64,000 nucleotides of DNA from Hygrophila difformis. Lineage: Eukaryota > Streptophyta > Magnoliopsida > Lamiales > Acanthaceae. The stretch lies in assembly GCA_030278955.1 (NCBI GenBank), contig JAOANR010000003.1, positions 54,036,902 to 54,100,901 of the forward strand, written 5' to 3'. Position numbers and translations under genes: made by a program. This document shows, piece by piece, positions 17,423 to 62,721 of the stretch. The notes beneath the pieces are model-generated. The model was given only the letters and a program-made list of their open reading frames with translations. It was not told the origin of the DNA and made no database searches. How positions within the stretch are numbered: position 1 is the first letter of the stretch; the number at the start of each line of letters is the position of its first letter.

Positions 17423-18892
17423 ATACAAGTATAGAAGACTTAATAAATGAATTAAGTAGTGATTTAGAACGACTAAATTTAGAACCAATATATACAGGAA
17501 CATTTTCAGAAACAGAATTAGAAACTAATGAAAGTGATTTGGAAGAACAACATAATGTCTTTATGAATAATCATAGATTATATTTACCATCATCAGAAGT
17601 AGTTGGAGAAACTAGCACTACCTTGCCAAGAGAAGGTGTAACAGGAACTATACCAATGGAAGTAGATCAAACTACAAATAGACAAAATATAGACAATTAT
17701 CAAAGTAGATTACAAAATTTACCTTCAAGAAATTTCCCAATGAGAAAAACAACCTCTAAAAAAGAAATTTGGAAATACAATGAAGATTTTGAGTTAAAAT
17801 AAACAAGAATAGGAAATGTGAGACCAGGAGATGCAATATTCCTAAACCTGGATTGTCTTAAACAGCCAAGTCTAGAACTAGAAAAATGGAAACAGATAAT
17901 AAGAATACATTTAATGTCAGAAGAAAGTACGTCAAGAGCAAAAACATTAAAAATATGGAATTTAGTCCAAGGAAATGTGGCACAATTCCTTGCAGGAATT
18001 TCCTCAAATACAAAATAAACTTATATGAATACAATTACTCAAGGATTTGGGCAAGATGTAAACACAGGAATAGAGGAATTTATCAATATCATACAAGAAG
18101 AATTTCTAGGAGTACAAAGCTTAGATAATAATGCTATAATAGAAGAACGAGATCAAGCGTTACTAAGATTAAATAAAATAAGACTAAGAGATTTATGCTT
18201 TTTTGATCAATTCTCTGAACAATTTAAAAGTTACTATTATACAGCTTATACAAGCTCATAAAATAATGAACACACCATGAACTCTATATTTTCAAAACTA
18301 CCATCACCATGGGATGAATATATGTGGAAAACATGGATTCAAAATAAAAATGACTATCTGAATAATTTAGGAAGCCAAATAAGATTAATAAGACAGGTAA
18401 TAACTGAGTTATGTTACCAAAGAAAAATATTAGATCACACTAAAATATATAATAAAGCTGCTGATTTATGCTGTCAAGAAAATGCAGAAAATTTTGAATG
18501 GGGAAAAAATAAACCATATAGAAAAAATAAGAGATTTAAAAAATTTAAACCAATAAAAAGAAAATTTAAAAAAGGAAAAAGATTTAAAATCTTTAATAAG
18601 AAAAAATTCTTTAAGCCAAAATTTGGAAGAAAATATTACTCATAAAAGAAGAAATGACAAAAGACAAAATAAAAAGAATCCAACCACATGTAAATGTTAT
18701 AACTGTGGAGAAATAGGACACTTTGCAAGTGATTGTACAAGACCAAAGAAAAAACAAGTAAGATTTATGGAATACGATATTATAGATGAACAAATATTCA
18801 AAGAAATAGAATCAGATCTAGAAAGTATAAGTGAACCAGAATCAGGAGATGAGATATATGAAGTAAAATTCTCTGAAATAGAAAATGAATAA
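17419..18892 (+). pseudogene. Viral capsid protein ORF (broken)
   Basis: The ORF starts with an acidic N-terminal region. The capsid core follows (DEYMWKTWIQNK region at about 18295-18340), then a very basic Lys/Arg stretch encoded at about 18510-18640. A zinc knuckle CYNCGEIGHFASDC is encoded at 18695-18736, the C-x2-C-x4-H-x4-C signature of caulimovirid capsids, and the tail is acidic. Three in-frame TAA codons interrupt it at 17800-17802, 18016-18018 and 18259-18261. A frameshift between about 18620 and 18645 separates the basic stretch from the zinc knuckle. The protein would build the icosahedral shell and bind genome or pregenomic RNA. Not functional as it stands. Confidence 0.8.
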
Positions 18893-20261: not shown

Positions 20262-22139
20262 AAGAAATTAGATTTCCAACAACAGTATACCTAGAGTTAA
20301 CTATACTACAAACAAATATAACAACATGTGCTATACTAGATACAGGAGCAGAAATCACATTAATACAAGAACATTTAATAAAAGAATGGGAAGTAAATAA
20401 AAGACCAATAGAAGTACATGGAGCTACTGGACACAGTCTAATTATTAATAAAATAGCTAAAGATGTTCAAATAATTTTAGGTAATAAAATATTTACAATA
20501 CAAGAAGTATATGTTAGCCCAGTAAAAACAATTGATATATTATTAGGGACAGATTTTACAAGTTTATTTCAAAGCTTTAGAGTAGATAGATATAATATTC
20601 AACTTAGATCAGCATGTAACCACTATATTACTATTCCGAGAATAAGGAAACCATACAGAGTGCTTCAGAAACGTGGTGAAAAAGGAGAAATTATAAAACA
20701 ACCAATTACTTATTACATAAAATTTAAAATTCACAAAATTAAAAAACAAGTGCTAATTCAAAAGCCGGAAGATTTTGATAAATATGAACTTCATGAGACA
20801 ATAAAATGGAATCTTAATAAAATATGCAGAATTAAAAATGAAAAACGACGATATAATAATAAGAACTCAACCTATGATGCAAAATCAAGAAGATATTGAA
20901 GAACTTCAAAAACAAATAAATGAATTGTTAGATTTAGATCTTATTCAAGAATCTATAGCAGAACATAATAGTCAGGCTTTCTTGGTTAGAAATCGTAGTG
21001 AACAAATAAGAAAGAAACCAAGGTTAGTAATAAACTATAAGGAACTAAACAAAAACATGATATTTGATGGATACTTTCTACCTAACAAAGAAAATCTAAT
21101 AGGATTAGCTAGAGGTAGAACTATCTATTCAAAATTTGATTGTAAAAATGGATTTTGGCAAATTAAAATGCATCCAGATAGTATAAAATATACAACCTTT
21201 AGTACACCACAAGGACACTATGAATGGAAAGTTATGCCGTTTGGAATAAAAAATGGACCACAAATATTTCAAAGAAAAATGGATAAAACATTTAAAAAAT
21301 TTAGTAACTTTATATTTGTATACGTAGATGATATACTAATAGCCTCAAACACTATAGAAGAACATAAAAAATATTTAGATATATTTGCAAAACTTTGTAA
21401 AGATCATGGATTAATCTTATCAGAAAAGAAAGCAGAAATATTCAAAAATGAAATAGAATTTTTGGGTCTAATATTAAACAAACTTGGAATTAAAATGCAA
21501 CCACACATAAGTACAAAACTTGTTAAAATGCCTGATGAACTTAGGAATAAATTAAACATACAAAGATTTCTTGGAATTTTAAATTATGCAGAAGGATTTA
21601 TATCAAATTTAGCAAAAAAGACAAATGATCTAAGAAAGTTGATCAGAAAAAATAATAAAATAGGATGGAATGATCAACATACTAAAATTGTCAAACAATT
21701 AAAAGAAGAATGCTCCAAATTACCACCGTTAAGATTACCTGACAAAAAAGATAATTTAATAGTACAAACCGATAGCTCAGACTACCATTGGGCAGGATTA
21801 TTAAAAACCAATACTGGTGAAATTTGTAGATATGCATCAGGAACATTACAAGGAGCAGCCATAAACTATAGTACAAATGAAAAAGAATTACTTGCAGTGA
21901 TTAAATCAATAGATAAATTTTAATTTTGGTTATTAAGTAGAAAGTTTAAAGTATTAACTGACAATACACAAGTAAAACCTTTAATTTATAATAAAGTTCC
22001 AAATAAACCCCAATATAGAAGAATAATAAGATATCAGACTTTTTTGTCAATGTACGACTTTACTGTTGAATATATTAAAGGGACTGAAAATTATCTAGCT
22101 GATTTTTTGAGCAGGAACCCTGAATATGGAGAACAATGA
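20258..22139 (+). pseudogene. Viral protease-reverse transcriptase-RNase H (broken)
   Basis: The ATG overlaps the movement-protein TGA. Protease: CAILDTGAEITLI (Asp at residue 28) and DILLGTDF (residues 93-100). A frameshift near 20838-20899 leads into RT, which has YSKFDCKNGFWQIKM, the active site VYVDDILIAS (encoded around 21318-21347) and FLGLILNKLGI. RNase H begins with QTDSSDYHWAGLL. It is interrupted by one TAA at 21921-21923 and resumes in the same frame to VEYIKGTENYLADFLSR, ending at TGA 22137-22139. Domain order without integrase is typical of caulimovirids. The enzyme would copy pregenomic RNA to DNA using the tRNA-Met primer. One frameshift and one stop make it non-functional. Confidence 0.85.
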
Positions 22140-23214
22140 ACAATTGGATGATGCTGGTCTGACTGACCACATTTACAATGAAATAGATCGACTACAAAAA
22201 CTACTCCAGTCGACTATGGACAGACAACTAAAACTACAACAATTGATTGTTGGGAGTTTTATGGACGAACATAAGACTATCAATGACGATATATATGAAT
22301 GTAATAAATGTTTGCAGGGATTACTAACTACTATGGAAGAATACTTTTACACCTCTGAAGAACTAAATACTGGTGTTTCAAACCAGGAAGGGAAAGCTAA
22401 TCCTGTTCCACAAGAGGACAAACAAGCAAAACAATCTGGAGATGCAAGACCTTCGACCTCGTCGAAAAACATTGCAGAAACTAAGAAGTATTTTTGCGAC
22501 AATATTCCTCAACCAACACCCATTAGCCCTGAAACAAGAAACTTTTTAGCAGAATACCATACCTTAAGCAGCTACATATACTCTTTACCCAGACAAGAAA
22601 CATCATTCTACACAGAATTCACCAAATCCCTACATCCACAAGTAACTATTTTACCAGGCTGCGACCCAAACTTTGTTTCGAACTGTTTCAAATTCGGCTT
22701 TATCAGAACTATTTTCCTGTCCCCTTTACGAACCGAAATATCCAAATTACCTGTATTAATTGAAGCCCTAAACATAAGACCAAAAACCCAGAAACTGAAA
22801 ATATTTTCTATCAGTCCAGAAGTAAAACACTCTTCCTACCATCTTGCTATTGCAGAAGAAATCACTAAACCAGAAAGTTATCCTCAAGACTATGGAACCC
22901 CCAAAAAAGAAATCTTCAATGACAAATACATCCACTTCAAAAGAGCAATGGGAATACGTGCTGTCCATGAACAGATGAAAAGACTATACAACCAAGGAGC
23001 AGGAATCTTTTTTGGAAATGAAGAAATCGTAGTGATTGAACAATTGAACACTCCAGGATTCAGATCAGGAAACTTAGCAGGACTAATTCAGAAATTTGAC
23101 ACATACAATTTTGAATGCTCAGAAGAAGTCAAGATAATCTGGAAGAAAGCTGTAGAAAAATCCACCACAAGTCTAAAGACAAGAACATTTCTTCGGAAAG
23201 AGACAACGAAGTGA
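22126..23214 (+). CDS. Transactivator/viroplasmin-like viral protein, 362 aa, intact
   Basis: The start overlaps the end of the RNase H frame by 14 bases, and the ORF is open to TGA at 23212-23214 with no break. The N-terminal 80 residues are helical and charged, followed by a Pro/Ser/Gln linker, then a longer folded part. Last ORF before the promoter is the position of the caulimovirid ORF VI product, which forms inclusion bodies and enables reinitiation on the polycistronic RNA. The overlapping ORF starts in this virus fit such a mechanism. I did not identify a diagnostic motif with certainty, so the assignment rests on position, size and context. Intactness next to broken genes is notable. 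Confidence 0.6.
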   Translation: MENNEQLDDAGLTDHIYNEIDRLQKLLQSTMDRQLKLQQLIVGSFMDEHKTINDDIYECNKCLQGLLTTMEEYFYTSEELNTGVSNQEGKANPVPQEDKQAKQSGDARPSTSSKNIAETKKYFCDNIPQPTPISPETRNFLAEYHTLSSYIYSLPRQETSFYTEFTKSLHPQVTILPGCDPNFVSNCFKFGFIRTIFLSPLRTEISKLPVLIEALNIRPKTQKLKIFSISPEVKHSSYHLAIAEEITKPESYPQDYGTPKKEIFNDKYIHFKRAMGIRAVHEQMKRLYNQGAGIFFGNEEIVVIEQLNTPGFRSGNLAGLIQKFDTYNFECSEEVKIIWKKAVEKSTTSLKTRTFLRKETTK

Positions 23215-33773: not shown

Positions 33774-36700
33774 ATGTTGGACTTGAACGTGACACCAGTT
33801 CCGGACGATGATGCCCCAATGGTGGACGATGCTTTTGATGTGCTTGATGCTGCTCCAGAACGTGATACTGACTGCAACCATATGCAAGGCAACCATGGAG
33901 TTTGCCAAGAGAAGACTAAATCGGCAACCAATGTTCGTGATTCCGATGTTGACGGGAAAGGTATATAAAACGGAATTAAAGGATGTATTGTGATGCATCA
34001 ATGTGCTAGTTTGTATAATATGTAATATGTGATAGCGATTATTGCAGATGAAAGTGACGATGACACACATGATGCCGAAGAAGTAGAACAAGATGACAAT
34101 ACATCCACATCCCTCGGCGAACGCACACAAGGGTGCAGCCAGCCAACGTTTTCTTCAGGTATATCATTCATACGAAATTGTTTATGCAATAGCGCATTTG
34201 TGTGACGTTTAATTCGCATGTGAGGGAAAATAATACAGTCATCACCTACCATGAAATGAATATATCGACTAACACAATATTTCATTACGAATCTCAGACA
34301 TCGAAGAATTCCGTGGAAGCACATTCCCGACTGTACAAGATGCGTACGAGGCCTATTGCATATTTGCCCATCAACGTGGATTCGCCGTCCGGACACGATA
34401 CCATCGGAAAGCAGAATTCGACAAGACGATCGTATGGTATATGTTATATTGCTGCAACAAGCAAGGGTACCGTCGTAACAGCGCAATGAATCCCCTAAAC
34501 CAAGATTCAACGAGTGAAAAATATAAGGGGGAAAGTAGCCGGAGCAAAATAAGACACATTGACGAAACTCGTACTGGGTGTGAAGCGATGATTCGCTTCA
34601 AGTTAGATCTGAAGAAAAAACTGTATGTTGTTCACAAAATGAATGATGTGCACAACCATCCCATGCACGATGCAACGACGAAACATGTATTAAGGTCCAA
34701 TCGGGTTATCTTGAAACATCATGAGTTAATCGCAAGCCTAGGGGAGAAAGCAGGTTTATCGTTAAATGAGTCGTACGGCTTGATCAAAGCGATGGCGGGA
34801 GGATCAACGAAAGTTGGTTTTCTTAAATCGGACCTTAAGAATTTTTAACAAGAAACGCAGTCGAGTGATGAGGCAGGGGGAAGCACAAACCCTGCTCCAA
34901 TACATGCAGGATTCGTAGAGGAATGATCCGGGGTTCTACTACGAACTACACATCAATAATGATCGCCAAATAGGTAGCATATTCTGGGCGGATGGCAGAA
35001 TGCGACATGATTACTCAATGTACGGTGATGCAGTTGCTTTGGATACAACATTCAACACAAATAAAAATTCGCGACCCTTAGGTATGTTCAGTTTGTCGAT
35101 CAATATGATCTACCATATGTTTTTTTTTAATATGGAACATGATGTTAAACGACCATAATTTGTTGCCCATTCAGCTTTGTTTGTCGGTTTCAACAATCAC
35201 CGAAGTGGAAGTGTGTTTGATCTTGCATTGCTTGTAGACGAGACACAAGCAAGTTTCGCATGGCTACTGAAGACGTTTTTATGGTGCATGAAGGGTTAGT
35301 GAAAAATCAAGTCCCTTAAATATTGTACTGTGCTATAGTGCGAGTATTCATGTGCTAATGTGTGCCAATATTTGTGATAATTGTTTGTGAAGCATGTGCT
35401 GTTTGATATGGAGTTGTGTTATATCGATATTGTCACACGTAGCATCAATGTAGGTGCAAAATTACTTACAAAGATTATTTTTGGGTGATATTTTGTGTGC
35501 ATATTAATAAGCGTTATGTGCTGAGCTTCAGTTAGTATTGTGATAATGTAATATGTATGATGTGATATTGCATGTGTTCTGAAAATTAGATCTGCTATTC
35601 TGGTGGCATGTTGTTTGTGTGCTGTATACATATTTATATTGTGATACTATTACGCGTTAGATGTGCTGCTTTATACATATTATTGTGCAGGTACACCACC
35701 AAAGAGTATAATGACTGACCAAGATCCGGCAATCGCAGCTGCTATACGGTCTATGCTTCCGGATTCATACCATGGCCTTTGCACATGGCATATATTAGAG
35801 AACGTAAAAAAAAACCGCAGTAAGCGATACACAAAAAGGTTTGGCTCCAATACATGCTCGTCTACATATGTACATGTCTACTTCAATGCATCAATTGTAA
35901 TAATGTATCTTTGCACCGGTTTAGGTTTGCAGAATACTTCAATGTACTCTTGTACAAGGTGATGAATGAAGAGAATTTCATGAAGCATTGGAATGAAATG
36001 ATTAAGGAATGTTTTGATGGGGTTCCGCATCGTTGGCTTGATGGTATTTTCACCTTGCGTAAACATTGGTCTGCTGCTTGGCGCCGCCACCAGTTCACTG
36101 CAGGCATGCGCAGGACACAAATAAGCGAGTCTACTAATGCTACTCTAAAAAGGTTAATTGTGGAGTTTATTTGATTGATTTGAGTACTTGTTAGACCGTG
36201 TAATATGCATGCTATGTATACTGATATGCACACGATATTATGTCTGTCACAGGTATCTTCAAGTTGACCACAACATCTCACAATTCTTCATGCACTTCAA
36301 TCGTGCTATCGAAAACAGGCGGGCAGAAGAGGCGGAATTACAATTTAGGTCGGTGGATAAAAATATGAGTGCGCGGTACCCGTGCAGTCCCTTGATTGAT
36401 TCTGTCGCATCATCTTATACCCCATCCATGTTTGATGCTTTTTGCAATGAGTATGTGAGGTCACATAGATTCTTCATAAAGGAATCGGTTGGGCCATCAT
36501 TGCTTGGTGCGAAATCCTATGAAGTTTGGAATCCGAATAAGGTAAAGGATATCAATCGAATGCACACCGTGACACTCTGCCCCAGTACTACTTCAATCAT
36601 GTGCACGTGCTGCAAGTTCGAAAATTGTGGGATATTGTGTAGGCATGCCTTACGTGCGATGACGATACTCGGTTATTTGTCATGACTGAATTCAACAAAG

Positions 36701-40349: not shown

Positions 40350-42784
40350 AAAAAAAGTTACTGTAGCACGCTACTGTAGCATGCTACTGTAGCAGTCGGG
40401 CATTATGTGTTTTTGGCGACTTTTTGCCATTTTTTGGGTCCCAAAGGTGGGAATCTTGATCTATCACGGGTGAGGCCTCTTTTGGACGTTATGTATTGAG
40501 TCCCACCTCCATTGTCAGCCATTTTTCATCAATCATTCACCCCAAAACTCTCCCAAAGCCAAACACTCTTCCGACGAACTTCCGGCGACTTTCCGACGAG
40601 TTTCCGGCAACCAAATCCAACCAAGGAAGTGTGTAGATCAAGTATTGCAGGCTTTGGATTGTTGGTAAGATGTTATTCAAGTTTCCTTATGATTTTAAGA
40701 TCATAAACATCATCCTAACTTACGAATCTTCGTATTCAAACACAAATCGGAGCCAAGGGAAGAATAAATCGGGTGGAAGAGATTCGTTCGTGACATCCCG
40801 TGGATTCCGGACGACCCCGTGACTTCCTAGACATCATCCCCACTGTAAGTTAACCTTACTATGGTTTTGGGTGACTTAAAATGCAACCAAACATAGAGAT
40901 TCAACTCAAGAAAATTAATGAAAATCTGTCAACAAGAGAAACCCTCAACGCAGCGTTTTCGTATGAATTTTTCAAACCTCTAAAGCTGCTCAAACAAGAA
41001 AACTCAAAACATGAAAAATGTTCCTAAGACTTTGATCTAGCTTCTGTAAAAATTTTAGAATTTTCATGATGTTTTGAAACCTGAAACCAACCCAAAACCG
41101 AAGAGTATTAAACCTGGATCTTAGAACCTTGGACAGATTTCACTCACAATCTTGTTGGTTATTTTGACCATGGATCTAGGCCGATCTAGGATTGGTGTTG
41201 AACATGAAAATTGTAGATCTATGAGTTTAGAACATTACTGTAAGTTTTTAGAATTTTTCGTTGAGATTTGAGCCTCCGAATCTGAGCCGATCCGATCTGC
41301 GTTAGAACCGATGTCAGGAACCTGGACAGATTTCATAACCGAACTTGAGGAACATATTCCTATCACTTCTAGCCCGAACCAATCTATGTGATCTAAACAA
41401 AAGTTGTTGGAAATCAAGTCTAGTATGTGTCTGTAAAATTTCAGAATTTTTGAAGTTCATTTGGTATGTTAAAAAGTCAAATCTTTGAAAGGTGTCAAAC
41501 CTGAATCCTGACAGCATACTATTTGAGTCGAAAATTTGATTTTTGACATGCTTCCCATCGTTTTTCCGAAAAACTTAAAACACGAAAGTTGTTCGTTGGG
41601 ATGTTATTGAGCTACTGTGAAAATTTCAGATCAATCACCTAAGTAATGGATTTTTAAACTAAAAAGGCGCAAACTGTGATTTTTAAATCAAAGAGATTTT
41701 GAAATTTCGAACAAACGGTCGAGACGTTGAAATACGATATAACTATACTTTTGAAAATCCCGTTATACTAAATCAAAACACATGAGATACTTAATCGACG
41801 TAGAGGGTGAGTGCTCGATAGAGTGCCCCTCTAGCTCTTCGCATCGTGCCTATACGGACGAGTGTGACCTATGTAGAGGGTGAGTGCTCGATAGAGTGCC
41901 CCTCTAGCTTTTCACTTCGTGCCAAAACGGCCGAGAGTGATCGACGTAGGGGGTGAGTGCTCGATAGAGTGCCCCTCTAGCTCTTCGCATCGTTCCTATA
42001 CGGACGAGTGTGACCTATGTTATGTAGAGGGTGAGTGCTCGATAGAGTGCCCCTCTAGCTTTTCACTTCGTGCCAAAACGGCCGAGAGTGATCGACGTAG
42101 GGGGTGAGTGCTCGATAGAGTGCCCCTCTAGCTCTTCGCATCGTGCCTATACGGACGAGTGTGACTATAAAAGAAACGAGAAATGTTGAGATGATGGCGT
42201 AACGGGAAATAAATATATATTAAAAAGCTCAGATTTTATGAAATTGGCTGCGGCCGCCGGATTGCCGGCTAAATTAAATATTGTTGAGATGGTGGCGTAT
42301 CGGGAAGAATTTTTAAAAGCTCAAAACATCTTTTTATTAAATTTAATTAAAGGCTTTGAAACCCCTAACCCATGCTATGTGTTAACTTACTCAGCGCGTT
42401 TTTGCTGACCCAAACCATTTATCCTCTTTTTCTTTCAGAGTTGAAGAATATGCATCATCATATGCATACTGGGAATTTTTGGGGATTACATTATATTTAA
42501 AATTTTGCGTTAGACTAGAATTTGCATGAACGTGCCTGTTTAACCCGTGTTTTGGCCATGTTGGCCCTATATTTAAATTCCGCTGCACTATATATGTAAA
42601 TATTATTTTCCGCTGCAACTTTGATGTATTATTTTTAAATTATATATGAATGGGCTGTTTGAATATTTTAAATTCTGAAAAACCATAGCCTTGCATCTCT
42701 TTAGTGAGCTCGGAGAAACCGTGTCTTGCTAGGGAGGTGTGGCGGTGGCATCCCGGCCTGGGTTACCAAAACCGGGGTGTTACA
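40350..42784 (+). repeat. Probable solo LTR of a Del/Tekay-type gypsy element
   Basis: The right end is CCAAAACCGGGGTGTTACA, a form typical of the 3' end of plant chromoviral (Del/Tekay) LTRs. The left part has TACTGTAGCA repeats (40360-40400), GACGAACTTCCGGCGACTTT-type words near 40575, and long non-coding sequence, all common in those LTRs. No PBS or coding region follows, so it is a solo LTR or a remnant. The left border and target duplication could not be fixed. The sequence right after it (42785-42807) is the 3' end of a Stowaway MITE (GGAACGGAGGGAG then TA). Confidence 0.6.
41800..42167 (+). repeat. Alternating A/B tandem repeat, 73-bp unit
   Basis: Five units begin GTAG(A/G)GGGTGAGTGCTCG at 41800, 41873, 41946, 42024 and 42097. 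Units 1, 3 and 5 share one second half (CTCTTCGCATCGT.CCTATACGG) and units 2 and 4 another (TTTTCACTTCGTGCCAAAACGG). This is a higher-order period of about 146 bp, with a 5-bp insertion in one junction. It lies within the probable LTR. Confidence 0.9.
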
Positions 42785-46545: not shown

Positions 46546-46597
46546 AAAAACTTCAAAAGCTTGAACATTAACTTTGAGTTAATGTAAAGACCTTAGA

Positions 46598-48007
46598 TAT
46601 GCTCTCTCTCGACCTCTCCCCGATCCACCTATTCTGTCTCCCCTTCCGGCAGACTCTCGGTCCTCCTCTTCTCCGTCGTTTCGTGATGTCGTCAAGGCAA
46701 TTTCTGCTGTTCCGCCGCCTATAATCGTTGATACTCGTGACTGGTTGAAAGACAACTTAGCTTCTATTGACAGTAATCGACCCCATCGATGTTGTCCAAA
46801 GATCATATTTGAGAAGGCTGCCCTTGATGAATTGTACAAACCCTGGATGGACACACTGGTGATCAAGGTGCTTGGTCGCTCTGTAGGTTATATTGCCATG
46901 AAGGAAAGACTAAGCCGTGCATGGAAACTTGCAGGCCAATTTGATCTCTTAGCTTTAGGTTACGACTGTTTTCTCGCCAAGTTTGCTAGGCCAGATGATC
47001 GTGAAAAGGTACTCACGGGAGGGCCTTGGATGGTTTTTGACCATTTTCTTGCAATTAGAAGATGGTCGGCAGATTTCAATCCAAAGAATTCTAAGGTGAC
47101 CACGATACAGACTTGGATCCGGTTCCCGGATCTCAAACAAGCTTTTTATAAAGAGAATGCCTTAAAGGTTATTGCTTCAGCACTGGGAATGTTTATCAAA
47201 GTGGACAAACATACCTTGACAATTGCTAGTGGGCGATATGCACTAGTTTGTGTTGAAATTGATATAGATAAACCTCGCAATAGGATGTTGGACGTCGAAG
47301 GTGAAGTGATTCAAGTGGCTTACAAAGGCCTCCATTTGATGTGCATGAAGTGTGTGCGCTTCGGTCACTTGCAGGACCGTTGTCCGAATCCTTCAAAAAA
47401 ACCCTGTGTCAATGATACGCCGGAAACTGACCAAGGGATGGAAGCTGTTCCGACTGATGTGCCGTCAATAATTGATGAGAACAATAAGAAAACCAACGCT
47501 ATTTTCGGAAACAAGATCTCAAATTCGGAAAAAGATTTAGCTAATAAGGTTAGTGTATCTCCAGGTTTTGTGGAAAAAGATCAAGTGGATTTAGAGGTTG
47601 GGGAATGGATGTTAGTCAAGAGGGCGAAGCCTCGACAACCTAAATCTGAAAAATCTAAACCTTTGACGAATGGAGATCCTCAGTTCCATGACATACGAGT
47701 TGAGGGAAAAGATATAGCCAAATCCCAGGATTGTCAGACTGAAGGAAAAGAGTGCTCAATGGAGTTAATCGCAGATGTGTCGAATGAAGGCCCCAAGCTC
47801 CATGACACACGGGTTGAGAAAAATGATAAATCCCAGGATTATCAGACTGCAGGGAAAGAGAGCTCAATGGAATTAGTAGCAGATGAGTCGACTAAATTTA
47901 AGGCTGCACTTGTGGTTACCAGTCAAAGAAGGTTCATAAAACCTTCGCATGGTGGGAAATATTCTAGAAATGATAAAAAAAAAGGCTCTAGAAGCAGTAA
48001 AGAATAG
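46598..48007 (+). CDS. LINE ORF1 (DUF4283 and CCHC zinc knuckle), 5' incomplete
   Basis: The frame is open from 46598, but the first ATG is at 46745, within a conserved region, so the true start is lost. A typical SFRDVVKA segment precedes it. The DUF4283-like part (about residues 60-190 from 46598) includes FLAKFARPDDREKVLTGGPW and IRRWSADFNP. CMKCVRFGHLQDRC is the zinc knuckle. The last 150 residues are Lys/Glu-rich and contain two imperfect copies of a roughly 40-residue segment (ITHDIRVE / LHDTRVE, each followed by KSQD and ELIADVS / ELVADES). The product would bind LINE RNA. It is the only long intact frame of this element. Confidence 0.8.
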   Translation, partial: YALSRPLPDPPILSPLPADSRSSSSPSFRDVVKAISAVPPPIIVDTRDWLKDNLASIDSNRPHRCCPKIIFEKAALDELYKPWMDTLVIKVLGRSVGYIAMKERLSRAWKLAGQFDLLALGYDCFLAKFARPDDREKVLTGGPWMVFDHFLAIRRWSADFNPKNSKVTTIQTWIRFPDLKQAFYKENALKVIASALGMFIKVDKHTLTIASGRYALVCVEIDIDKPRNRMLDVEGEVIQVAYKGLHLMCMKCVRFGHLQDRCPNPSKKPCVNDTPETDQGMEAVPTDVPSIIDENNKKTNAIFGNKISNSEKDLANKVSVSPGFVEKDQVDLEVGEWMLVKRAKPRQPKSEKSKPLTNGDPQFHDIRVEGKDIAKSQDCQTEGKECSMELIADVSNEGPKLHDTRVEKNDKSQDYQTAGKESSMELVADESTKFKAALVVTSQRRFIKPSHGGKYSRNDKKKGSRSSKE

Positions 48008-52099: not shown

Positions 52100-53953
52100 C
52101 TGCTAATAGTTCTGGGGTTCTATTTCACCTGCTTTTGATTTCTTTTTTTTTACAGTTCTTCCTCCCCGGCCCCTGTTCTATAGTTTTTTCAAGCTTTCCT
52201 CTTTGCCGACCCTTGAAACTTTTGACCATTTCCCGCACGAGTATTTTCGAAATAAAAGGAATCCCGGTCTTGATTTTATTTAATAAAAATCAATTTATGA
52301 GTACGGAGTTGGGATTAGGGATATATGTATAGGTTGTCACGTTTTTATTACTCGTGTTAAGAAACTGTGGCCCGAAAGCGCACGGTGTCAAAAATTGCAA
52401 CAATTTGTAGGTAAGTCCGGATTGTTCACTGGAGGATGTGCGATGGAAGCAGGTCCCACGCCATTTTACAAGATTTTCAACTCGGTTACTCGAATCAGTT
52501 TAAGAAGTTGACTAACAATGCTTTACTGAATTTAAACTAGGCTATGAAAGCAATTATAGTTATTCTATAAAGCATGCAAAATTCTATTCTAGAGTGCAGA
52601 TAAGTTTAAGCTAAAAAGCAATTAAGATTAGGTCTAGGAAAGCAGATAAATCTACCCTATAGAAGCAATACAATTAATCTAAGAAATGCTATAATCTAAG
52701 CTATACTAGCTATGAAGCTGATTCAAAATGATGACAGAATGGACAGGGAGAAGAGAATAAAGATTGGACAAGATTTAGCTAAAACATAATTAAACTTCCA
52801 TTTTTATACACAGATCTTCGTTTGGGATAATCCTGTCAAATAGCTAGTTCTCATGCTCTCAGTACTATGTTCCCTTTAACAGACAGGTACTTACAGTATG
52901 AGTTTACATGTTCTTAAGACCACAGATTCTAAGATACTACAGATTCATAACTGCCCCGGCCAGGGTATGCTATTTCATCTGTGGTGGACAAGCAACACCC
53001 GACAAATCATTAGTTGAAGTGCCAAGTACTGCTATCATTCCCCCATGTCACACCCAAAGTTTACAAATAAGCCTAAACTATCCCTTAACTCTCAGACCTA
53101 GAAGCAGTTCCACTACTCTCAATACAACCGAGTGACCTCTAAAGAAAGCATTTAAAAGAAAGCGGTAAAGAAAGAATTTAAAATCCTATCACTCGGAGGT
53201 CTTGAAAGAGTTACCCTGGTAGTATAAGAAGAGCCCCCAGTCATGATGACCGGATGTGGATCAAGAATTCCCATATCTCGGTGAACTGCTCGCAGTGTTC
53301 ACTCCCTTCCGGGTGGTTATGAGGTACAAACTAATGAAACGAACTAATAAATTATTTCGTTCCGGATGCACTCACTCAGGACTCAAGAATAGGCTTTAGC
53401 ATAAGAGGATAGCAGTTGAAAGGAACTCAACCCTATCTTAGAAAATAACCAAGGCATGTGTATTGTTCCTTCAGAATTATCTGTCACACTGTAATAGAAT
53501 CCAAGTGGATCCCATCTCGGTGCGACAGTTAAGACTAAATTCCCAACACATAGGAATTTTGGAAAATAATAGATTTGAAAACCATTCCCTAAACAGGTAC
53601 TAGACTCTCAATAAGAACACAGACCCTTTCTGTCTAGAAGAGACCTAATCGCTGACTCTGCTTCTAATTTCCCAAAATTTAACCCTTGACCGAGTATGAA
53701 CTAGTCATAACTGAGGAATTTATCCCTTATTTAGATCTGGATTTTATAAATGAATTTTTATTGGAAATTTAATATGCAGTATCTATTTAAATCTAGACTT
53801 CTGATGTCCAAGGAAAGGATCCCAAAATATTATAAACCACAATAATTACATAATAATATCATGCATAAAGATATATGGAAGTGTAAAATTAATTAACCCA
53901 AAATATAAAAGTGGGTTTAGACAGAATGCAGAACACAGATATGAAGTGGCCGC

Positions 53954-53982
53954 GGGGGGGGGGGGGGGGGGGGGGGGGGGGG
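53954..53982 (+). repeat. G29 homopolymer
   Basis: Twenty-nine consecutive G residues between CGC and CGATAG. It may form a G-quadruplex in the plus strand or may partly reflect assembly error. Confidence 0.9.
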
Positions 53983-54600
53983 CGATAGTGGTGGCAGAAT
54001 AATCAGGTGGATTGCAAACATCTGCTATCCAGCTTCCCAATTACTCGGATTGAGTGAATTTAGATAGTAGAAACCCTATAATGGCAGTGTCGCTACCAGT
54101 TGGGCCCCTACTGTCTGCGAATTCAGATAAAAACCTACATGCTCCCTCTCTGTAGTATTCATCAGCTAATATTGACAGATATCAACCAGCTTATACTACA
54201 GATTGGAATTTCGGTTTGGAAATTAAGATAAAGAAAATAAAAACTGTATCTGGATAGGAATCAGCTGAGCAGCTATTATAATCCCGGATGGACGAACCGC
54301 CAAGGCTTCCACCGACCACTACCCAGACCATGCAAAATAACAGCTAGTACTTAATACTCAGACTACGAGCTAGTTTATCCGTGTGGGATACCCGCCAACA
54401 TTAGTTTGATGTATTCCTTACTAGTTGTTTCACACAATCACGAGAAAGACAAAATAAATTAAACAAAAGAGAGTGCCTTGTATGAGAGACATTGGTTTCT
54501 CATACAAGGCTATGGAGTTAATCCATAATTAATGACTTAAATAATCCTTCATACCATAATTAATTACAGTCCGGATTATCTGCTTAAGGCATTAAGGTTT

Positions 54601-54610
54601 TATTTATAGA
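54601..54610 (-). promoter_or_regulatory. TATA box, minus strand
   Basis: TCTATAAATA on the minus strand, about 175 bp downstream (in that orientation) of the hairpin array. Confidence 0.45.
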
Positions 54611-54771
54611 AGAATATTTTAATGAAAATTGAACAAAGGTCCTTTAATCATGATAATTATTGATTTAATTATTGCTAATCATAATCATTAATTAATGACT
54701 CAAGGGTTCAATTAATTAATGGTCGGATATGGAGAAACATAAAAATTGGCAAGGGAATGCCATGCTTGTCG

Positions 54772-55530
54772 CGACACAAAATTGCGTCATGAACCGTGGG
54801 TTCCCATTCATGACGGGAGGATCACGACATGGGGGGGTAGAGAATAAAAGAATTTGATTGTAGGGTTTTCCCAGTCCTTAAACAAATTGCCAGTCGCCAG
54901 ACGTGGTCTGCGACTGGGGTTTGGGGATTAGGGGTCAAGAAGATAGAATTTTTGTGATTTAATAAAGGGATGAGGACCCAGTCGCGATACCAAAAATTGT
55001 GTCGTGAACCAAGGTTTGCGCCATGGGTATCGCGACATGTTAGGTTTTAGAAATTTTTGCAAGACTTTGGCTTCGTGGCGCTAGACAAAAATTGTGTCGC
55101 GAGACGTGGTCCCGCGACAGGAGTTTAGCGACATGAAAATTTTTAGAATTTTTTTAAGTATTTGGGTCCCCGGTCGCTAGACGTGGAAAGTGTGTCGCGA
55201 GACGTGGTCTCGCGACAGGATGATCTAGCGACTGGGCTTTCGAAATATTGCTAAGGCATAATTTTCTAGTCCTGAAACTAAAATTGTGTCCTGAACCGTG
55301 GGTTCAGGACATGAGTTACATGACTAGAGCCTTTCAGAGGAAAATACAAGAATTTGGTCCACAGTCGCTAGGCAAGAGTTGTGTCGCGAACCGTGGGTTC
55401 GCGACAGGAGTCTAGCGACTGGGGTTTTAAAAATGTTAAGACAAGTGTCCCTAGGCATCCATGTCGCGAAACAGCCTTCCTGTCGCTAGACGTGGTCTCG
55501 CGACAGGAAGAGGTTGGCGACATGAATGGT
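54772..55530. repeat. Eight-unit array of nested hairpins, about 100-bp period, with covarying stems
   Basis: Inner hairpins are centred at about 54797, 54904, 55010, 55107, 55205, 55299, 55394 and 55493 (spacing 94-107). The loop is GTG or GTGG. Stem arms differ between units yet stay complementary: TGTCGCGAGAC/GTCTCGCGACA at 55193-55217, TGTCCTGAACC/GGTTCAGGACA at 55287-55311, and TGTCGCGAACC/GGTTCGCGACA at 55382-55406. Several are enclosed by an outer pair such as AGTCGCTAG / CTAGCGACT. Some units are imperfect (54797, 55010, 55493). Confidence 0.9.
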
Positions 55531-56168
55531 TCAGGACACAAGTCAGAAAAAGCAAATGGAACAGTAGCATGCAAACAGCGTGATCATACCCTACTTCAGA
55601 TCAAAAAGCTATTCTAACCCAAATATAACAAAACATAATGTGAAAATAACAAGAACATGCTTGAACAAAAATGTAAATCTACCAGAACAGAATTTAAAAT
55701 AAAGCATGACCCTAACTAGGATTTAATCACACGCATACATGAACATTATCCCAAAAATAAAATAACACTAAGCATAAGATGCATAATAAAGGTCAAATGA
55801 CCAAAAGAAAATGAAAGCAGTAAGGAATCCATGGGGTGTGAGACTCATTTCATATTTTTGGGACACAGATAAAGAATATTTTCCCATTTTTATTTAGTGG
55901 GTTTGATATTATCCATTAATTTGGATAATACAAACCCTAAAACCGAAAGTTGGAAATAGAACAAGATCTAAAACTGGCTACTTAAGCTATTGAAACAGAA
56001 AACAACATAAAAATTAAAACAAACTAAGCTAAACTATGACAGAAATTAAATAATACAAGAAAAAGAACTAAACTAAACTAAACTAAAGAAAGACTACCTA
56101 AGAACTGATCTCCAAGCTTGTCCTCAAGAAAAATGAAATGCTGACCCCGAGCACATAGGGATCACCAT

Positions 56169-56178
56169 CTATTTATAG
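56169..56178 (-). promoter_or_regulatory. TATA box, minus strand
   Basis: CTATAAATAG on the minus strand, about 45 bp downstream of the hairpin-word cluster at 56220-56520 and followed by a plausible transcribed leader. Confidence 0.5.
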
Positions 56179-56219
56179 AAGTGAAACCCTAAGCCCATGG
56201 GCCTTGATCCCGAGGCCCA

Positions 56220-56520
56220 CATGTGTCGTAAGACTCACAAACATCACAGCTTCCTTCGTGTCGCGAGACTGCGTGGTGTGGCGCGATATCACGCGATGTG
56301 GCGCTAGACGAGGCTGCATGTTGCAAGGCTTCTTGACTGAGTCTCTAACCTGCCTTCTGTGTCGCGGAACACCTCCCAGTCGCGAGGCAGTCGCGAGGCC
56401 ATGTTTTGCGACTGAGGAGTTTAGGGACTGGCTTCAGCTTTCTTCTGTCTCTTGGGTCACGAGACTCCCTCCAGTCGCAAGGCCATGTTCGCGACTGGGT
56501 ACCAGTCTCGCGACTGGCTC
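56220..56520. repeat. Second cluster of GTCGCGAG / CTCGCGAC hairpin words
   Basis: Same words as at 54772-55530 (CAGTCGCGAGGC, GTGTCGCGAGAC, TTGCGACTG, TCGCGACTGG) in both orientations, but less regular in spacing. Confidence 0.75.
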
Positions 56521-56869
56521 GTCCTTATTGGGCCTGATCGGCCAAAATATATTTTTGTGGGTCTTTTCTTTCTTTTCCCATCATTTTGTATTTTGTGGGC
56601 CTGGTTTATTCTTTTGCCCATCTTTTTCATTCCTTTTTCTTTTCTTTTCTTTTTCTGTTGTTTATGGATTTTTCTAGCATAAATGTGTAATAAAATTACA
56701 TATTTATGTATTTTTCATACCAGCTTATTATTTTTACAAATATGCATAAATCAGTCTAATTCTACTGCTTTCTTATTTAATATATGACCGGAATGCGATC
56801 AAATGCCCGTTTCAGACACGGAAATGGATTGAAAATAATGGACATTTCTGGCCATTATCAACATCCTCA

Positions 56870-58497
56870 CATTAAATACTGATCGTCAGAGTCAATGTTC
56901 CTAAGAACACGGACTCTACATATTCAATTCATTTTCGTGGCTTCATAAATTACATTCTTTTTGGATTGAGATAAGACAATTAGAACTACAAGTATTAAAT
57001 TCCTTTGATTGCAGTGTTTAATGAAATGATACTTGCTCACTAAATCGGGCCTACAAATCAAACATTGCTGTTAACCCTTCATGAATATCATGTTTGAAAA
57101 ATGCAAGGGTTAAAAATTAGAATTAAGGTGTGACACGAACATACTTAATGAAATAGAACCTCACATATAAGAGAATCGGAAATTCACTCACTCTCAACTG
57201 GAGTTTAATCGTTGAACGCTCAAAATCAAGTTTAATTAAATTGTCCCATAAGCTTGCAATCAGACCAACTCGCCACCGGCTCATTTCCTCAAATTGAGAT
57301 CCCGAGGTCTTATTAAGGTTATAACGGGGCATACGGTTGTAACATTTGGTAGGAAAGGGAAATTATTGGGTTAAGAAATGACAAGAATTTATTCTATCAT
57401 AACTTGGCATTTTTATTTAAAATTTATGATCATCAATATTTTCCTCTTTCTTTTGCTTTTCTTCTTCTATTGCATGACATTAGACCAAGTCTAAATTGCT
57501 TTGTCAATTGCAATTTATTATTGTTGAATGGATCTCAACATATTTCTTTCTCTATTTTCTTCTCTTTCTCTCTTTTTTTTTTTTTTTGAATCGGCCTATT
57601 GAACACCGATTTATATGTTTTTTATGATCACAAATTTAATGCCTTTGATGGAATTTATCCTTGTCCACTTGGGTTGAATATTTTGGTCTTTTTGTAAGGC
57701 TAGGAAAATATAGTGGGTTTCAAGAAAAATTAGGCTTAAAGGCTCAAGTTGGTTAATCCTAGGGGAAAAATATTTTTGGGTTTGGATTTCAAACAAAGGC
57801 CAAAAATTGGGTTTTCTAAGTGCCTCGATCATATGCTCAATTTCGGGAATATGACATGGTCTTGAATCGGTCTCAATTGCAAGTTCTAGTTTCCTTTAAT
57901 CAAAATGATTCACACATCAAAGAATTAAATGAGTGAAAGTGACTCATGGCTCAGATCTCACAAGGTTGGATTGATTCATGTCATAAAGTATTCTAAAAAT
58001 TAATCAAAGCTTAACTCTAACACTCTATCCAATCAAAATTTTCAACATGCAGATTTATTACCCAATAAGCTGATCGCATCATTAAATTTTTATGGCTCAA
58101 AACCTTAGGAATTCATTTCATGCATGTTCTCAATTATATTATCCCAATTTAAAAATTTGAAAATTTAATCACAAGCCTAAATTCAACATGTGAATTTAGA
58201 GCAGGTTTATGCATACTTTTGTTGGTTATTTAATTTAAAGCAGTAAAAGAGCCACTGTTAACATACAAAGTATGTCAACAACATATTTTTGGCATGACAG
58301 TCACTTATTCATCTTGGACTGTCAGACATCTTTTCTCAAAATGAAATTGTTTGGACTGCAAAATTCCTTCTTGACAGCATTAAATACATCAATTACAAGA
58401 AATTTTCAATGCAGTAAAATCGAACTTGCACAGATGGTAGAAAATTATCTTATATGATGTTTACATTTAAGCTCACAATGATAAGATCGAGACACAC
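56870..58497. other. Non-coding, no gene recognised
   Basis: AT-rich; contains T runs near 57572-57587. It lies between the candidate LTR and the long minus-strand ORF. No readable pol or gag domains. Confidence 0.4.
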
Positions 58498-61400
58498 TCA
58501 TTCAGTCGGATCCTGGGGTTGATTGGAAGGACCAGCATCGTCTTTCGGTGGACCTGGTGGTTGCGGAAGTTGTTCAACCAGTGCAGACAGTACAAACTCC
58601 ATCATCTTCCGTTGCCTCTCCTCACTTTCCATGCGTTCTTTATGCTGTCTCTCCTCTCTCATCAACAGGAATCGTCTGAATTCGTCCTCTCTTCTCCTCT
58701 GTTCCGCCTTTTCTTCTTCTTTCTTTCTTTCTCTTTCTTCTCTCCTCTTCTTTTCTTCCTGCCTATCCCTTCTGTCATCTTCCCTTCCCAGGATGATCAC
58801 ATCTGCCAACTGCTTAACGCTTTCAGTCATGGTTTTGCTCATTGTGCTCACGATTTCAATTACTTGTGAGTTGGCAGGCTGTTGCGAGATATTTTGGCTC
58901 GGAGGAGGCATTTGTGGAGGTTGAGCTGGAGGTGGAAGTGGGATCTCTGTTTGTTCCTTCTGAGGCTCTTCTTGCACCGTGGTTGAAGGTCCCGCATGAA
59001 TACGGGCTTTCTTTGTTCCCTTCTTTGCCCTAGGTGGCCTAATTCTCTTGCTCGTGGAGGGTGCTTGATCACCAGATATGAATGAAGACTGAACCTCGGA
59101 GTCGCCGGGCATTTGGGGTAATGAATATGTAATTCTTTCCTACAGAGGGAGATTTGGCACATTGATGGGGGGATTCACTCTTATTGGCTGGTCGGTTGCA
59201 AACGCACTTAAGTCGACGCCCTGACTTATGCAGATTCTTCGGATCAAATTTGGATAGCACAAGACTTGCTTGTCTTCTATCCGGGTCGTCATGACTTCAA
59301 AAACATGCCTCCATATGTTCAACTTGACTCCATGCCACAGCTTCGCAAGTCCCATTAGGACACTTCCAGATGTAGTGTGTGGGTGCGAGTTGGGCCGGAT
59401 CTTCGACATATAAAACTCATAGGTCGGCATGAAGTGCAATTTCAACCTATTTGTATCAAAAGTATGGTCCGGAGTAGGTACCCTTGTCATGCTGTTTGCT
59501 ATGGCCGAATACAATGCAACTTTCTTGGTCTTCCCCCTTTCCATCAAAATTTCTCCCGCAGGGAACTCGGCTCGGATATCCGGGGTCTCAAAGAATGTAT
59601 TCAACCATTCGGGTGAGACGTTGATAACCTGACCCTGGATCCAAGTCCTCCTGTTGCTAAGAAGAATTCGCGAGTTAGCTCTACAAATCCATCTTGCTCA
59701 TTGTGCAACATGAAGTTTCCCCATTCTTGATTTCGGTAGAATGTTTCGACTGTGGGGTGGAGTAAGATATCTGGGCTGAATCCTTTATCTGGCACGATCA
59801 TCTTTAGCATTTTTGCATATCGTTCAACCCCTTCCATTCGCCCATTAAACTTGACCTCCAAGTCTGCATTGTCCAACTTCTTCTTTTCATACTGCTTTGT
59901 TACTCCCATCCGGTGCCTAATAGTATTTTCAGACCAGAATTCAATCGGTCTAATAGAACCAATTGATTCCAAGTCTTCACTAGTATGCCAATCTGTTGAC
60001 CTATTTTGATTTCCTTGGATGGGTTCATTACTTGATTCTGCCTCCTGCGCCCTTTGACTTGGTTCTCCTTCTCCCTGAACTGCTTCATTTCTAGATTCCT
60101 CCTCAACCTGTTTAATTAGATATTGCATTGTATTGCACTTAGTTTTTACAGGTAAAGGAAATGTAATTACAGGAAAGTAAGGATCATCAACGCTTGTTGA
60201 TACCTCATCCTCCTCCCTTGCAGATCGTCCAACAGGACGTTGGAAAATCGGCGTCATCTGCCCCATGAATTCTTGTTCCTCTTGTTGAGCTTCTTCTTTT
60301 TCTTCCTCCATATCATTCTTCCTTCTTTCAGTGAGATCCTGCGGTTTAACCATTTTGGCTTGCGGCTCATCAGCTTTGTCTTTCAACAGTTCAGACAGTG
60401 AGATCGGGTCTGCTGGAATATTTTCCTCTGGCTCGTCATTCCCTCCAGTCATGATTCTTCTTCTTTTCTCAGTCCCAGACGAACCTTCAGGAGCAATGAC
60501 TGCTTCAATTCTTGCTGTCCCAACAAGTGGATCAACAATCCGGCAGACCTCTGTTTGATATCTAATCTGTTCTCGCCCTTCTCCTTCATCAATTCTCCTT
60601 TCGATTTGTTCGTTAAGCCTTTTCCTTATATCTCCCCGGATAGTTTCAGCATCATGTGCAGTGGGGCCAGCCCATGTAGGGGGCTCCTTTTTTATCTTAA
60701 GCCCTTGCCCTTGCACTTCTCCTGTGATCTTAAGCTCATCATCATCATCTTGCCTCTCCTTCTCCACATCCTTTGGATTCCTTGCTTCTAATTCAGCTTG
60801 CAGTTTTTCAGCAATCTGTCTGTCATGGATTTCTTTCTTTTTTCTTTCCTCCTCAGCTTTTGTTCTTTCAATATTCTTTCTCATTTCAGCGTACTGACTA
60901 GCCCTTTCCTCTCTCCTCAATCTTTCTCTGATCTCGGCCTCACTGGGCGGTCTTTCAGAAGTTTGTTGTTCAAGAACACCTGCTATTGCATTTTCATCTT
61001 CTTGCATCTTTCTAGCCAACTCAGCATCTCGAGCAATTTGTTCTTTCCGTTTAGGAGGTGGAGGTGGCATTATCCCTTTGCCTCTATCTTTTGGGTCCGA
61101 GGGTGCTGCCTCCTTCCTAGCATTTGGCTCGGGTTCTTGGATTACCACTTTTCTTTCTGGAGCCCTTGCTGGTTTCTCTTTTTCAGCCAATTTTACCAGC
61201 CTTCTTTTTGTTTGAGCTTGAGGCACGGGCTGGCTTCCAGCTTGTACATCAGTTGGCGTTTCAGATTGAATCGGCTGTGTAGGGGGTTCTGTGGCAACAG
61301 ATTTCTGTAGTTCTGCTTGCCCTTTTGGTGGTAAAGCCGAGGTTTGCACAGTTGGTTGGGTGGCCTGAACAGGTTCTTCTGGAGGGGGAGTGGAGATATA

Positions 61401-62721
61401 GGCATCGGCAGTGGTATCTGGGTCTTCCTCATAGCCCAGTTGTTTTTCAGAGCGTTTCAAGTAGTCTGTGACGAAGCTCCGCTGAGTAATTCGCACAAGC
61501 TGTGCTTCCCAGTCCTCCTTTATCCTCTTGCAAAACTGGCTCCTGATATTATAATTGTAATGTAGGATCTTTTTCTTGTTTGTCTTGTCATTACAATATC
61601 GGAGTGCCTCCTTATCCATCTCCATTATCAATTCCAGGTAGGATTCCCGATATTTGTCCATCATAGCCCCTACCAGATCTTTTCGAATCCCTTCAAGATA
61701 GCCCATGTCTTGCGAACGTTAAAGTTGAGATAAGCTCCAGCCTCAGCTTCTGACATTAGCTGGAACTGTCTCTCTCCTTTCTTTATGGGCTTCCACTTGC
61801 CCTTTCGTATGTCCACAAGCAGTTGTTCCCTTAATACAGCGATATGCCGAGGATGCTCATCTTCTTTCGAAGTCCCAAATTGCCCGTATTTTCTGTGCGT
61901 GAAGATGGATTCGAGCTCCCCCTCAGCAGGCAGTTCCACTCCTTTATCCAAATGAGATTTAGTGATGCTCGGGTTTCCTTTTCCCCATACAAACATGAGG
62001 TTCTCCCATTCTTCCCTTGCGTCCTTGATCATTTTCCTCATGGTGTTCAGCAATGAAGTATTGTGGCCTTGCTCAAAATTTTCTGCACTTTTGAGGTGCT
62101 TGTGCAGGTTGCACCTTAATTCTCGGTGCCTGAGATGGGCCTGATCTGTAATCCACCTTTTTTCTACAAGTCCCTTCTTTTCAAGAAGATATGGGTTCCA
62201 TTTGAAGGGAAATGCTTCGTGAATCATGATGGCTCCGCTGTTTAAAATTCTGCTCAGATCAATCTGTTTGTCAGTGAAGGCCATTCTCACTTGTGGATCA
62301 ACGATCTGATTTGGGATGATGATATCAAAGTCGGCCAGATTTGGATCTTTCGTTCCTCTTTCCACATGCCGGTTCCAAATGGCTCTGTGTTCTCTAAACT
62401 TCAGCTGGATGCGTTCGTGGTGGACATCCTGAGTTGTTAGCACGTCATTTTTGGCATGGTCCATCATCATCCCCCAAATTTCTTTAGAAACTGATAATAA
62501 TCCCTTTCTATTGAGGCAGCAACAATTGTTCTTTCTTCTGGGGGTATGGTCACGTCCCATCCTTGTGGAAATTCCAATTTATCTTCTGTGGTGTGATCCA
62601 GCGGGACCTTATATTCTGACATGATCGCCGTCCTCATATTCTTGATTTCAGTTCGGTCAATCGAAGCCTCTTTGGCTGCTTGCTCATACGTGCAATCAGG
62701 CAGTCTGATGCCTGATTTCAC
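58498..62721 (-). pseudogene. Long charged retroelement-like protein with a putative plant transposon domain (frameshifted)
   Basis: A single gene of roughly 1400 codons appears split over four minus-strand frames: 62721-62467, 62560-61670, 61706-59601 and 59604-58498. The frameshifts lie near 62480, 61690 and 59660, and a frame end near 59140. A splice acceptor-like CCTTTCCAG sits just before 62735, so an upstream exon is possible. The N-terminal 350 residues look folded. The middle (61000-60100) is a Lys/Glu/Arg coiled-coil and low-complexity region rich in Pro/Gln. Around 59850-59220 the pattern GFVELTREFF, NVSPEWLNTFF, KKVALYSAI, LHFMPTYEFY and KQVLCYPNLIRRICISQGVDL resembles the 'putative plant transposon protein' domain (PF20167 type), often near gypsy elements. 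The C-terminus is again charged with Pro-rich ends. I do not know its function. Confidence 0.5.

What the first reader, a model, noticed from the sequence alone, without database searches (positions are those of the whole stretch)
54772..55530. Array of about 100-bp nested hairpins with compensatory changes in the stems
Eight units repeat at 94-107 bp. The inner stem sequence changes between units (GCGAGAC, CTGAACC, GCGAACC forms) while the two arms remain complementary, and outer arms (AGTCGCTAG / CTAGCGACT) pair around them. Random decay or cytosine deamination would break pairing; keeping it requires either selection on a DNA or RNA structure or a copying mechanism that rewrites both arms (for example hairpin-templated conversion or template switching during reverse transcription).
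Basis: seen in the sequence. Interest (0 to 1): 0.85.

Follow-up and report, generated by a model that had tools for sequence, protein, structure and literature searches.

The report
Covarying hairpin array in plant retrotransposon
Eight hairpin units sit in the long terminal repeat of a plant retrotransposon, and in lineages that went on jumping the two arms of the inner hairpins tended to change together, which points to a folded RNA that the element needs.

Summary
The array is real. Eight hairpin units (seven nested, U7 single), inner hairpins centred 94-108 bp apart, lie at 54765-55535 in a 4647-bp LTR (52214-56860) of a minus-strand Ty3/gypsy, Athila-like element in a plant genome. I compared up to 91 copies on a tree built from non-stem columns and flanking LTR. 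In the inner stems both partners changed on the same branch, with pairing kept, 14 times on internal branches over 68 pairs. About 0.3 is expected when arms are re-partnered between units (0 of 265 re-partnerings reach it), and breaks are nearly halved. On terminal branches breaks are only slightly below that control. One-sided changes on internal branches favour G·U on the element's sense strand (29 G·U: 9 A·C; terminal 99:88; p=0.011). A TATA box 99% identical in 68 copies lies upstream, so the array is probably transcribed. I read it as RNA structure selected in the element's own transcript. Hairpin-templated copying also acts: loops were inverted in at least two lineages, and insertions concentrate in hairpins. 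Outer-arm covariation is weak. Function is inferred, packaging or dimerisation being the best guess.

The parts
52214..56860 (-). LTR (4647 bp) of an Athila-like Ty3/gypsy element; on its sense strand it begins TGATAATGG and ends TTTCA; this is the 3' LTR side of a minus-strand element
   Evidence: the window aligns to both LTRs of a relative at C5 (L041, L042), which align to each other at 95.6% over 4645 columns; ends read; length
54765..55535 (-). array of eight hairpin units, U1 (high coordinate) to U8; all but U7 nested
55476..55510 (-). U1 inner hairpin, 16 bp with one mismatch, loop CAC
55382..55406 (-). U2 inner hairpin, 11 bp, loop CAC
55287..55311 (-). U3 inner hairpin, 11 bp, loop CAC; two adjacent pairs replaced in the five-copy clade of the window copy
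55193..55217 (-). U4 inner hairpin, 11 bp, loop CAC
55095..55119 (-). U5 inner hairpin, 11 bp with one G·U on the minus strand, loop CAC
55001..55022 (-). U6 inner hairpin with a 4-nt loop closed by C-G (CUUG here; UUCG or CUCG in 55 of 71 copies)
54890..54917 (-). U7 hairpin (one base lost in this copy), loop CAC
54785..54815 (-). U8 inner hairpin with a 6-nt insertion in this copy
56170..56177 (-). TATA box (TATAAATA) upstream of the array on the sense strand; 99% identity over 68 copies against 85% around it
56250..56520 (-). second cluster of CpG-rich palindromes (CCAGTCGCGA type), upstream of the TATA box
   Evidence: same in the C5 relative
58498..62578 (-). minus-strand open frames of the element's internal region; the frame at 59140-59697 matches PF20167 below its cut-off (36 against 45 bits)

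Best explanation
The array is a repeated RNA structural module in the transcribed part (probably R-U5, hence the 5' leader of the genomic RNA) of an Athila-like Ty3/gypsy retrotransposon. A unit is an inner stem of mostly ~11 bp capped by a CAC triloop (in U6 a C-G closed tetraloop), set inside a weaker outer stem (except U7). Shown here: the structure, its place in the LTR, pairing kept in the inner stems on internal branches of the copy tree, near-neutral decay on terminal branches, and slow change of inner stems and loops on internal branches. Moderately supported: the constraint acts on the sense-strand RNA (G·U kept over A·C). Inferred: transcription of the array, from the TATA box upstream. 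Guessed: that the hairpins are multiple binding sites for Gag or a host factor, serving packaging, dimerisation or translation of the genomic RNA. Hairpin-templated copying and exchange of whole hairpins between units supply some of the paired changes.
For: Covariation of inner stems, 91 copies, U1-U6: paired double changes 0.206 per pair on internal branches against 0.004 in the control, 0 of 265 re-partnerings reaching it; breaks 0.353 against 0.632 on internal branches but 2.28 against 2.42 on terminal ones. In the 71-copy set 17 of 17 same-branch co-changes kept pairing, against 10 of 30 in slid controls. Substitutions per column, internal/terminal: inner 0.71/2.14, loop 0.41/1.94, outer 1.08/2.38, non-stem 1.93/2.59; inner against non-stem p=1e-10. 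G·U:A·C on internal branches 29:9 against terminal 99:88, p=0.011; against the non-stem mutation bias p=0.019. A pattern search with the two innermost pairs left free gave 565 places; of the 100 listed, 77 Watson-Crick, 20 with G·U, 3 broken, against a shuffled mean of 53 paired. TATA box upstream. U6 loops: 61 of 71 are C(CUCG)G, C(UUCG)G or C(CUUG)G.
Against: The G·U asymmetry was absent in the first 42-row set (40 tips; all stems 41:37 internal against 81:89 terminal, p=0.50; inner stems alone 18:11 against 46:41), and it is modest at 91 copies. Double changes also exceed the control on terminal branches (0.132 against 0.030, 0 of 265 reaching it). Single-sided restorations do not clearly exceed the control at 91 copies (35 of 265 reach it). 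Mismatches are fixed in some lineages: U1 pair 5 is A·A in 22 of 42 rows. Five of 17 doubles look like copies of another unit's hairpin (my reading). No transcript, start site or probing data; another TATA-like site at 53748 is also conserved (97%) and, if used, would put the array in U3. Terminal branches of lone copies also hold some history before insertion. One genome only.
Confidence: 0.55

Rival explanations
1. Copying alone: template switching at the hairpins during reverse transcription or replication, plus exchange of whole hairpins between units, rewrites both arms at once; no function is needed.
For: Loop inverted from CAC to GTG with intact arms in U8 of L009, and GTG-type variants shared by the clade L092, L094, L095, so at least two events. 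Insertions of 4 nt or more: 10 in 211 inner-hairpin columns (L094 and L095 possibly sharing one) against 7 in 546 others, of which two are counted twice because L043 and L044 share them. Adjacent pairs changed on one branch in U3 of the window clade and in U5 of L056 and L062, 6 of the 23 inner doubles. U7 replaced by an unrelated 12-bp hairpin with the same CAC loop in L043 and L044. Doubles also on terminal branches.
Against: Copying does not predict G·U over A·C on one strand, nor that inner stems and loops change far less than non-stem columns on internal branches but only slightly less on terminal ones. 17 of the 23 inner doubles in the 91-copy set hit a single pair. Long-term maintenance of CAC loops argues against frequent free inversion.
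Confidence: 0.25
2. DNA-level regulatory palindromes: CpG-rich dyads that bind transcription factors or shape chromatin, as proposed for Sirevirus LTR repeats; RNA folding is a by-product.
For: Dense CpG and GTCGCGA dyads; a second cluster directly upstream of the TATA box and one in the gap after pol; both strands fold about equally well.
Against: The stem sequence changes while complementarity stays, which a binding site would not need; strand asymmetry of one-sided changes; the array lies downstream of the best TATA box.
Confidence: 0.15
3. Mutation pressure only: CpG deamination hits both arms of CpG-rich stems often enough to look like compensation.
For: Eight of 23 inner doubles in the 91-copy set are C-G to T-A at the same CpG pair of U2 and U3.
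Against: Re-partnered arms, largely of the same sequence, give almost no doubles. Doubles also include G-C to C-G, A-T to G-C, A-T to C-G and T-A to A-T.
Confidence: 0.03

Closest known systems
Palindromic repeated motifs of Sirevirus (Ty1/copia) LTRs (PMC2829016, passages seen; Bousios et al. 2016 known only through passages of PMC10760457, as PMC4728375 is not held)
   Same: many copies of a CpG-rich palindrome in the LTR of a plant retroelement, with a cluster just upstream of the TATA box and more copies between pol and the 3' LTR (in some Sireviruses at the env gene)
   Different: different superfamily; core GTCGCG rather than CGG-CCG; here the array units lie downstream of the best TATA box, are mostly nested, and their inner arms covary; I saw no covariation test in those passages
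Template-switch origin and upkeep of RNA hairpins (PMC8794818, abstract and passages seen)
   Same: multi-base compensatory changes and inverted loops
   Different: described there for RNA genes such as rRNA and microRNA; the words transposon and retro do not occur in its text; here selection on the structure also seems needed
Leader RNA structures for packaging and dimerisation in Ty1 (PMC5454406, passages seen) and in retroviruses (search listings only)
   Same: hairpins near the 5' end of the genomic RNA, needed in cis
   Different: here eight similar units over ~770 nt; the CAC triloop is not self-complementary; no function tested

Membership tests
Ty3/gypsy LTR retrotransposon | RT-RNase H followed by integrase, between LTRs | tested here: met
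   In the relative with two LTRs at C5 (L041, L045, L042): PF17917 E 1.9e-22, then PF00665 E 1.2e-17 and PF17921, between two 95.6% identical LTRs; not tested on the window's own element, whose pol would lie beyond the window
Athila lineage | long LTR, primer site for tRNA-Asp, extra open frames between pol and 3' LTR (features recalled) | tested here: inconclusive
   LTR 4.6 kb; TGGCGCCGTTGCCGGGGA directly after the 5' LTR, read as tRNA-Asp from memory; extra frames with a sub-threshold PF20167 match; no tree with reference lineages was made
Sirevirus LTR palindromes | Ty1/copia Sirevirus host element with CGG-CCG core repeats | tested here: not met
   gypsy domain order; repeat core is GTCGCG
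Conserved RNA structure | paired changes beyond controls that keep relatedness and composition | tested here: met
   inner stems; outer stems weak
Conserved RNA structure | G·U tolerated over A·C on the transcribed strand | tested here: met
   29:9 internal against 99:88 terminal, p=0.011; but not seen in the first 42-row set and not in outer stems (p=0.38)
Known Rfam family | match to one of 4227 models | tested here: not met
   no match up to E 1 in 52200-56900
Template-switch mutation | inverted loop or multi-base compensatory change on one branch | tested here: met
   U8 loop GTG in L009 and GTG-type variants in the clade L092, L094, L095; adjacent double changes in U3 and U5
Retroelement packaging or dimerisation signal | needed in cis for packaging or dimer formation of genomic RNA | not testable with these tools
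   no expression or probing data

The most novel reading that the evidence does not exclude
A plant retrotransposon carries a multivalent RNA module, eight hairpin units in its leader, whose inner stems are held together by two forces at once: selection on the genomic RNA's fold, and hairpin-templated copying that rewrites both arms and sometimes flips the loop. It may be a repeated Gag-binding packaging signal of a kind not described for plant elements.
Probability: 0.35. Interest if true: 0.75.

Novelty: new variant of a known kind. Interest (0 to 1): 0.6.

Why it matters
Leader RNA structures are well studied in retroviruses and Ty1. Among the rows listed by seven literature searches (10 to 20 titles and abstract starts each, out of up to several hundred matches) I saw none that describes such an array in a plant gypsy element. 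A family with thousands of candidate places, each with up to eight parallel units, gives a natural experiment in which selection on a fold and templated copying can be told apart on one tree.

Tried and rejected
Chance and simple CpG decay were rejected by the re-partnered-arm control. Strong covariation of the outer arms was looked for and not found: internal doubles 0.017 per pair, one-sided changes 34 G·U: 32 A·C internal, p=0.38, though internal breaks are fewer than in all 265 re-partnerings. A known RNA family was rejected at E 1. A self-complementary kissing loop was considered; CAC cannot pair with itself, and the TCGCGA palindrome in the arms is not kept in U3 of the window clade. Dicer-type precursors were considered unlikely from stem length (knowledge, not tested). 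The first pair table had wrong arm positions for several units and was replaced. One search stopped on an assertion and was redone. L033 (partly N) and L040 (foreign start) were dropped from the event counts and from the 71- and 91-tip trees.

Genome-wide counts of inverted loops, and of the A·C and G·U variants, were not obtained: the tool did not complete.

Full report
What is there. The array at 54772-55530 is real and runs a little further, 54765-55535. It lies in an LTR of 4647 bp (52214-56860). A relative at C5 has two LTRs that align to each other at 95.6%, begin TGATAATGG and end TTTCA, and the 5' copy is followed by a primer-site-like TGGCGCCGTTGCCGGGGA (read as tRNA-Asp from memory). 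That relative carries RNase H and then integrase domains, so it is a Ty3/gypsy element; I call it Athila-like from memory of that lineage's features, without a tree. In the window the element lies on the minus strand, so the sense strand is minus. The first look of the genome search counted 2948, 5217 and 3580 candidate places for three queries, of which 40 each were scored.

Anatomy. Read on the minus strand, a unit has an outer arm, a short spacer, an inner stem of mostly about 11 bp with a CAC triloop, a longer A/T-rich linker and the outer partner arm; U7 is a single hairpin and U1 has a longer inner stem. U6 has a 4-nt loop closed by C-G. In 71 copies that loop was CUCG 29 times, UUCG 26 times and CUUG 6 times, the other 10 differing; UUCG and CUUG are known as stable RNA tetraloops (recalled; TNCG and CTTG appear in a loop table in PMC8794818). 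The window array folds at z -15.4 on the sense and -14.6 on the other strand, so folding energy does not tell the strands apart.

Where it sits. On the sense strand TATAAATA at window 56177 has 99% identity over 68 copies, against 85% in its surroundings. Other TATA-like sites at 54608, 53748 and 52808 have 88%, 97% and 95% (39, 38 and 5 copies; surroundings 91-92%). If the first is the promoter, the array is in the transcribed leader. The site at 53748 cannot be excluded.

Covariation. I aligned 42, then 73, then 91 copies and built trees from non-stem columns and flanking LTR; the last 20 copies had no flank. As a control I paired each 5' arm with the 3' arm of another unit, which keeps base make-up, largely the CpG context, and the tree. 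With 91 copies and 68 inner pairs of U1-U6, internal branches show 14 double changes that keep pairing (0.206 per pair; control 0.004; 0 of 265 re-partnerings reach it), three more that do not, and 24 breaks (0.353 against 0.632; all 265 are higher). Terminal branches show 155 breaks (2.28 against 2.42; 12 of 265 as low), close to neutral. Doubles on terminal branches also exceed the control (0.132 against 0.030), and single restorations on internal branches do not clearly (35 of 265 reach the observed value). The 42-row set (40 tips) and the 71-copy set gave the same picture for doubles and breaks. In the 71-copy set all 17 same-branch co-changes of true partners kept pairing, against 10 of 30 for partners slid by one to three positions; the number of co-changes itself (9 internal, 8 terminal) lies at the edge of a null in which changes are moved to random branches (means 2.3 and 2.6, maxima 9 and 9 of 1000). 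The control does not rule out replacement of a whole hairpin from elsewhere, which changes true partners together.

Outer stems. Internal doubles are 1 in 60 pairs (0.017, control 0.000); terminal doubles 0.083 against 0.025 (5 of 265 reach it); internal breaks are fewer than in all 265 re-partnerings (0.700 against 1.152); one-sided changes are 34 G·U: 32 A·C internally. Some constraint is likely, but covariation is weak.

Constraint and strand. Substitutions per column on internal and terminal branches are 0.71 and 2.14 for inner stems, 0.41 and 1.94 for loops, 1.08 and 2.38 for outer stems, 1.93 and 2.59 for non-stem columns (inner against non-stem p=1e-10). One-sided changes from Watson-Crick inner pairs of U1-U6 on internal branches were 29 G·U, 9 A·C and 12 others, on terminal branches 99, 88 and 66 (p=0.011 for G·U against A·C; all eight units 37:13 against 117:107, p=0.007); against the mutation bias of non-stem columns p=0.019. 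With 71 copies, all eight units, this was 34:9 against 81:70 (p=0.003). With the first set it was absent (all stems 41:37 against 81:89, p=0.50; inner stems 18:11 against 46:41). I treat it as moderate evidence for RNA of the sense strand. A pattern search with the two innermost pairs free gave 565 places; of the 100 listed, 77 were Watson-Crick, 20 held a G·U and 3 were broken, against a shuffled mean of 53 paired (maximum 65 in 1000 shuffles). The G·U form GG/TC was listed 19 times and its A·C counterpart GA/CC never. These copies are related, so they are not independent events.

Copying. In U8 the loop reads GTG instead of CAC, with intact arms, in L009. The related copies L006 and L021 read CAT, and L006 lies 19.4 kb from L009, as the two LTRs of one element would. 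L092, L094 and L095 form a clade and all carry GTG-type variants, so that inversion was probably passed on by transposition. Insertions of 4 nt or more number 10 in 211 inner-hairpin columns and 7 in 546 others, two of the latter counted twice; several look like partial copies of an arm. U3 of the window clade changed two adjacent pairs on one branch. U5 of L056 and L062, and U4 of L010, look like copies of the U3-type hairpin. U7 of L043 and L044 is an unrelated 12-bp stem with the same CAC loop. These are footprints of the kind reported for template switching in RNA genes (PMC8794818).

Conclusion. The best account is selection on an RNA fold in transposing lineages, with templated copying and exchange between units supplying part of the paired changes. 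What the fold does is not shown. Packaging or dimerisation of genomic RNA is my first guess by analogy with Ty1 (PMC5454406, passages); translation control or a host-factor site are alternatives. It differs from Sirevirus palindromes in superfamily, motif and position (PMC2829016, passages).

Noticed in passing
56250-56520, and C5 element positions ~11.2-11.7 kb (L045): Further clusters of CpG-rich GTCGCGA palindromes: one upstream of the TATA box, one in the gap between pol and the following open frames, a layout like that reported for Sireviruses.
   Followed up: partly
L043:2111-9895 and L044 (beyond the window's right end): A second, related element (about 75-90% identical in parts) begins about 210 bases beyond the window's right end; whether it interrupts the window's element was not tested.
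   Followed up: partly
16172-23214 +: Open frames that read like an endogenous caulimovirid (coat, protease and reverse transcriptase-like); judged by eye, not tested.
   Followed up: no
53954-53982: Run of 29 G on the plus strand inside the LTR; relatives align on both sides of it.
   Followed up: no
13782-14540 -: Host-type sugar kinase exon (FGGY_N, E 2e-16).
   Followed up: no
34273-34848 +, 46583-48007 +, 1616-2410 +, 7095-7691 +: FAR1 domain (MULE-like or FAR1 gene), DUF4283 frame at the head of a LINE-like block (LINE by eye), reverse transcriptase RVT_1 with RNase H (gypsy type), reverse transcriptase RVT_2 (copia type).
   Followed up: no
41794-42165: Tandem repeat of 151 bp, 2.5 copies with 96% matches.
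   Followed up: no
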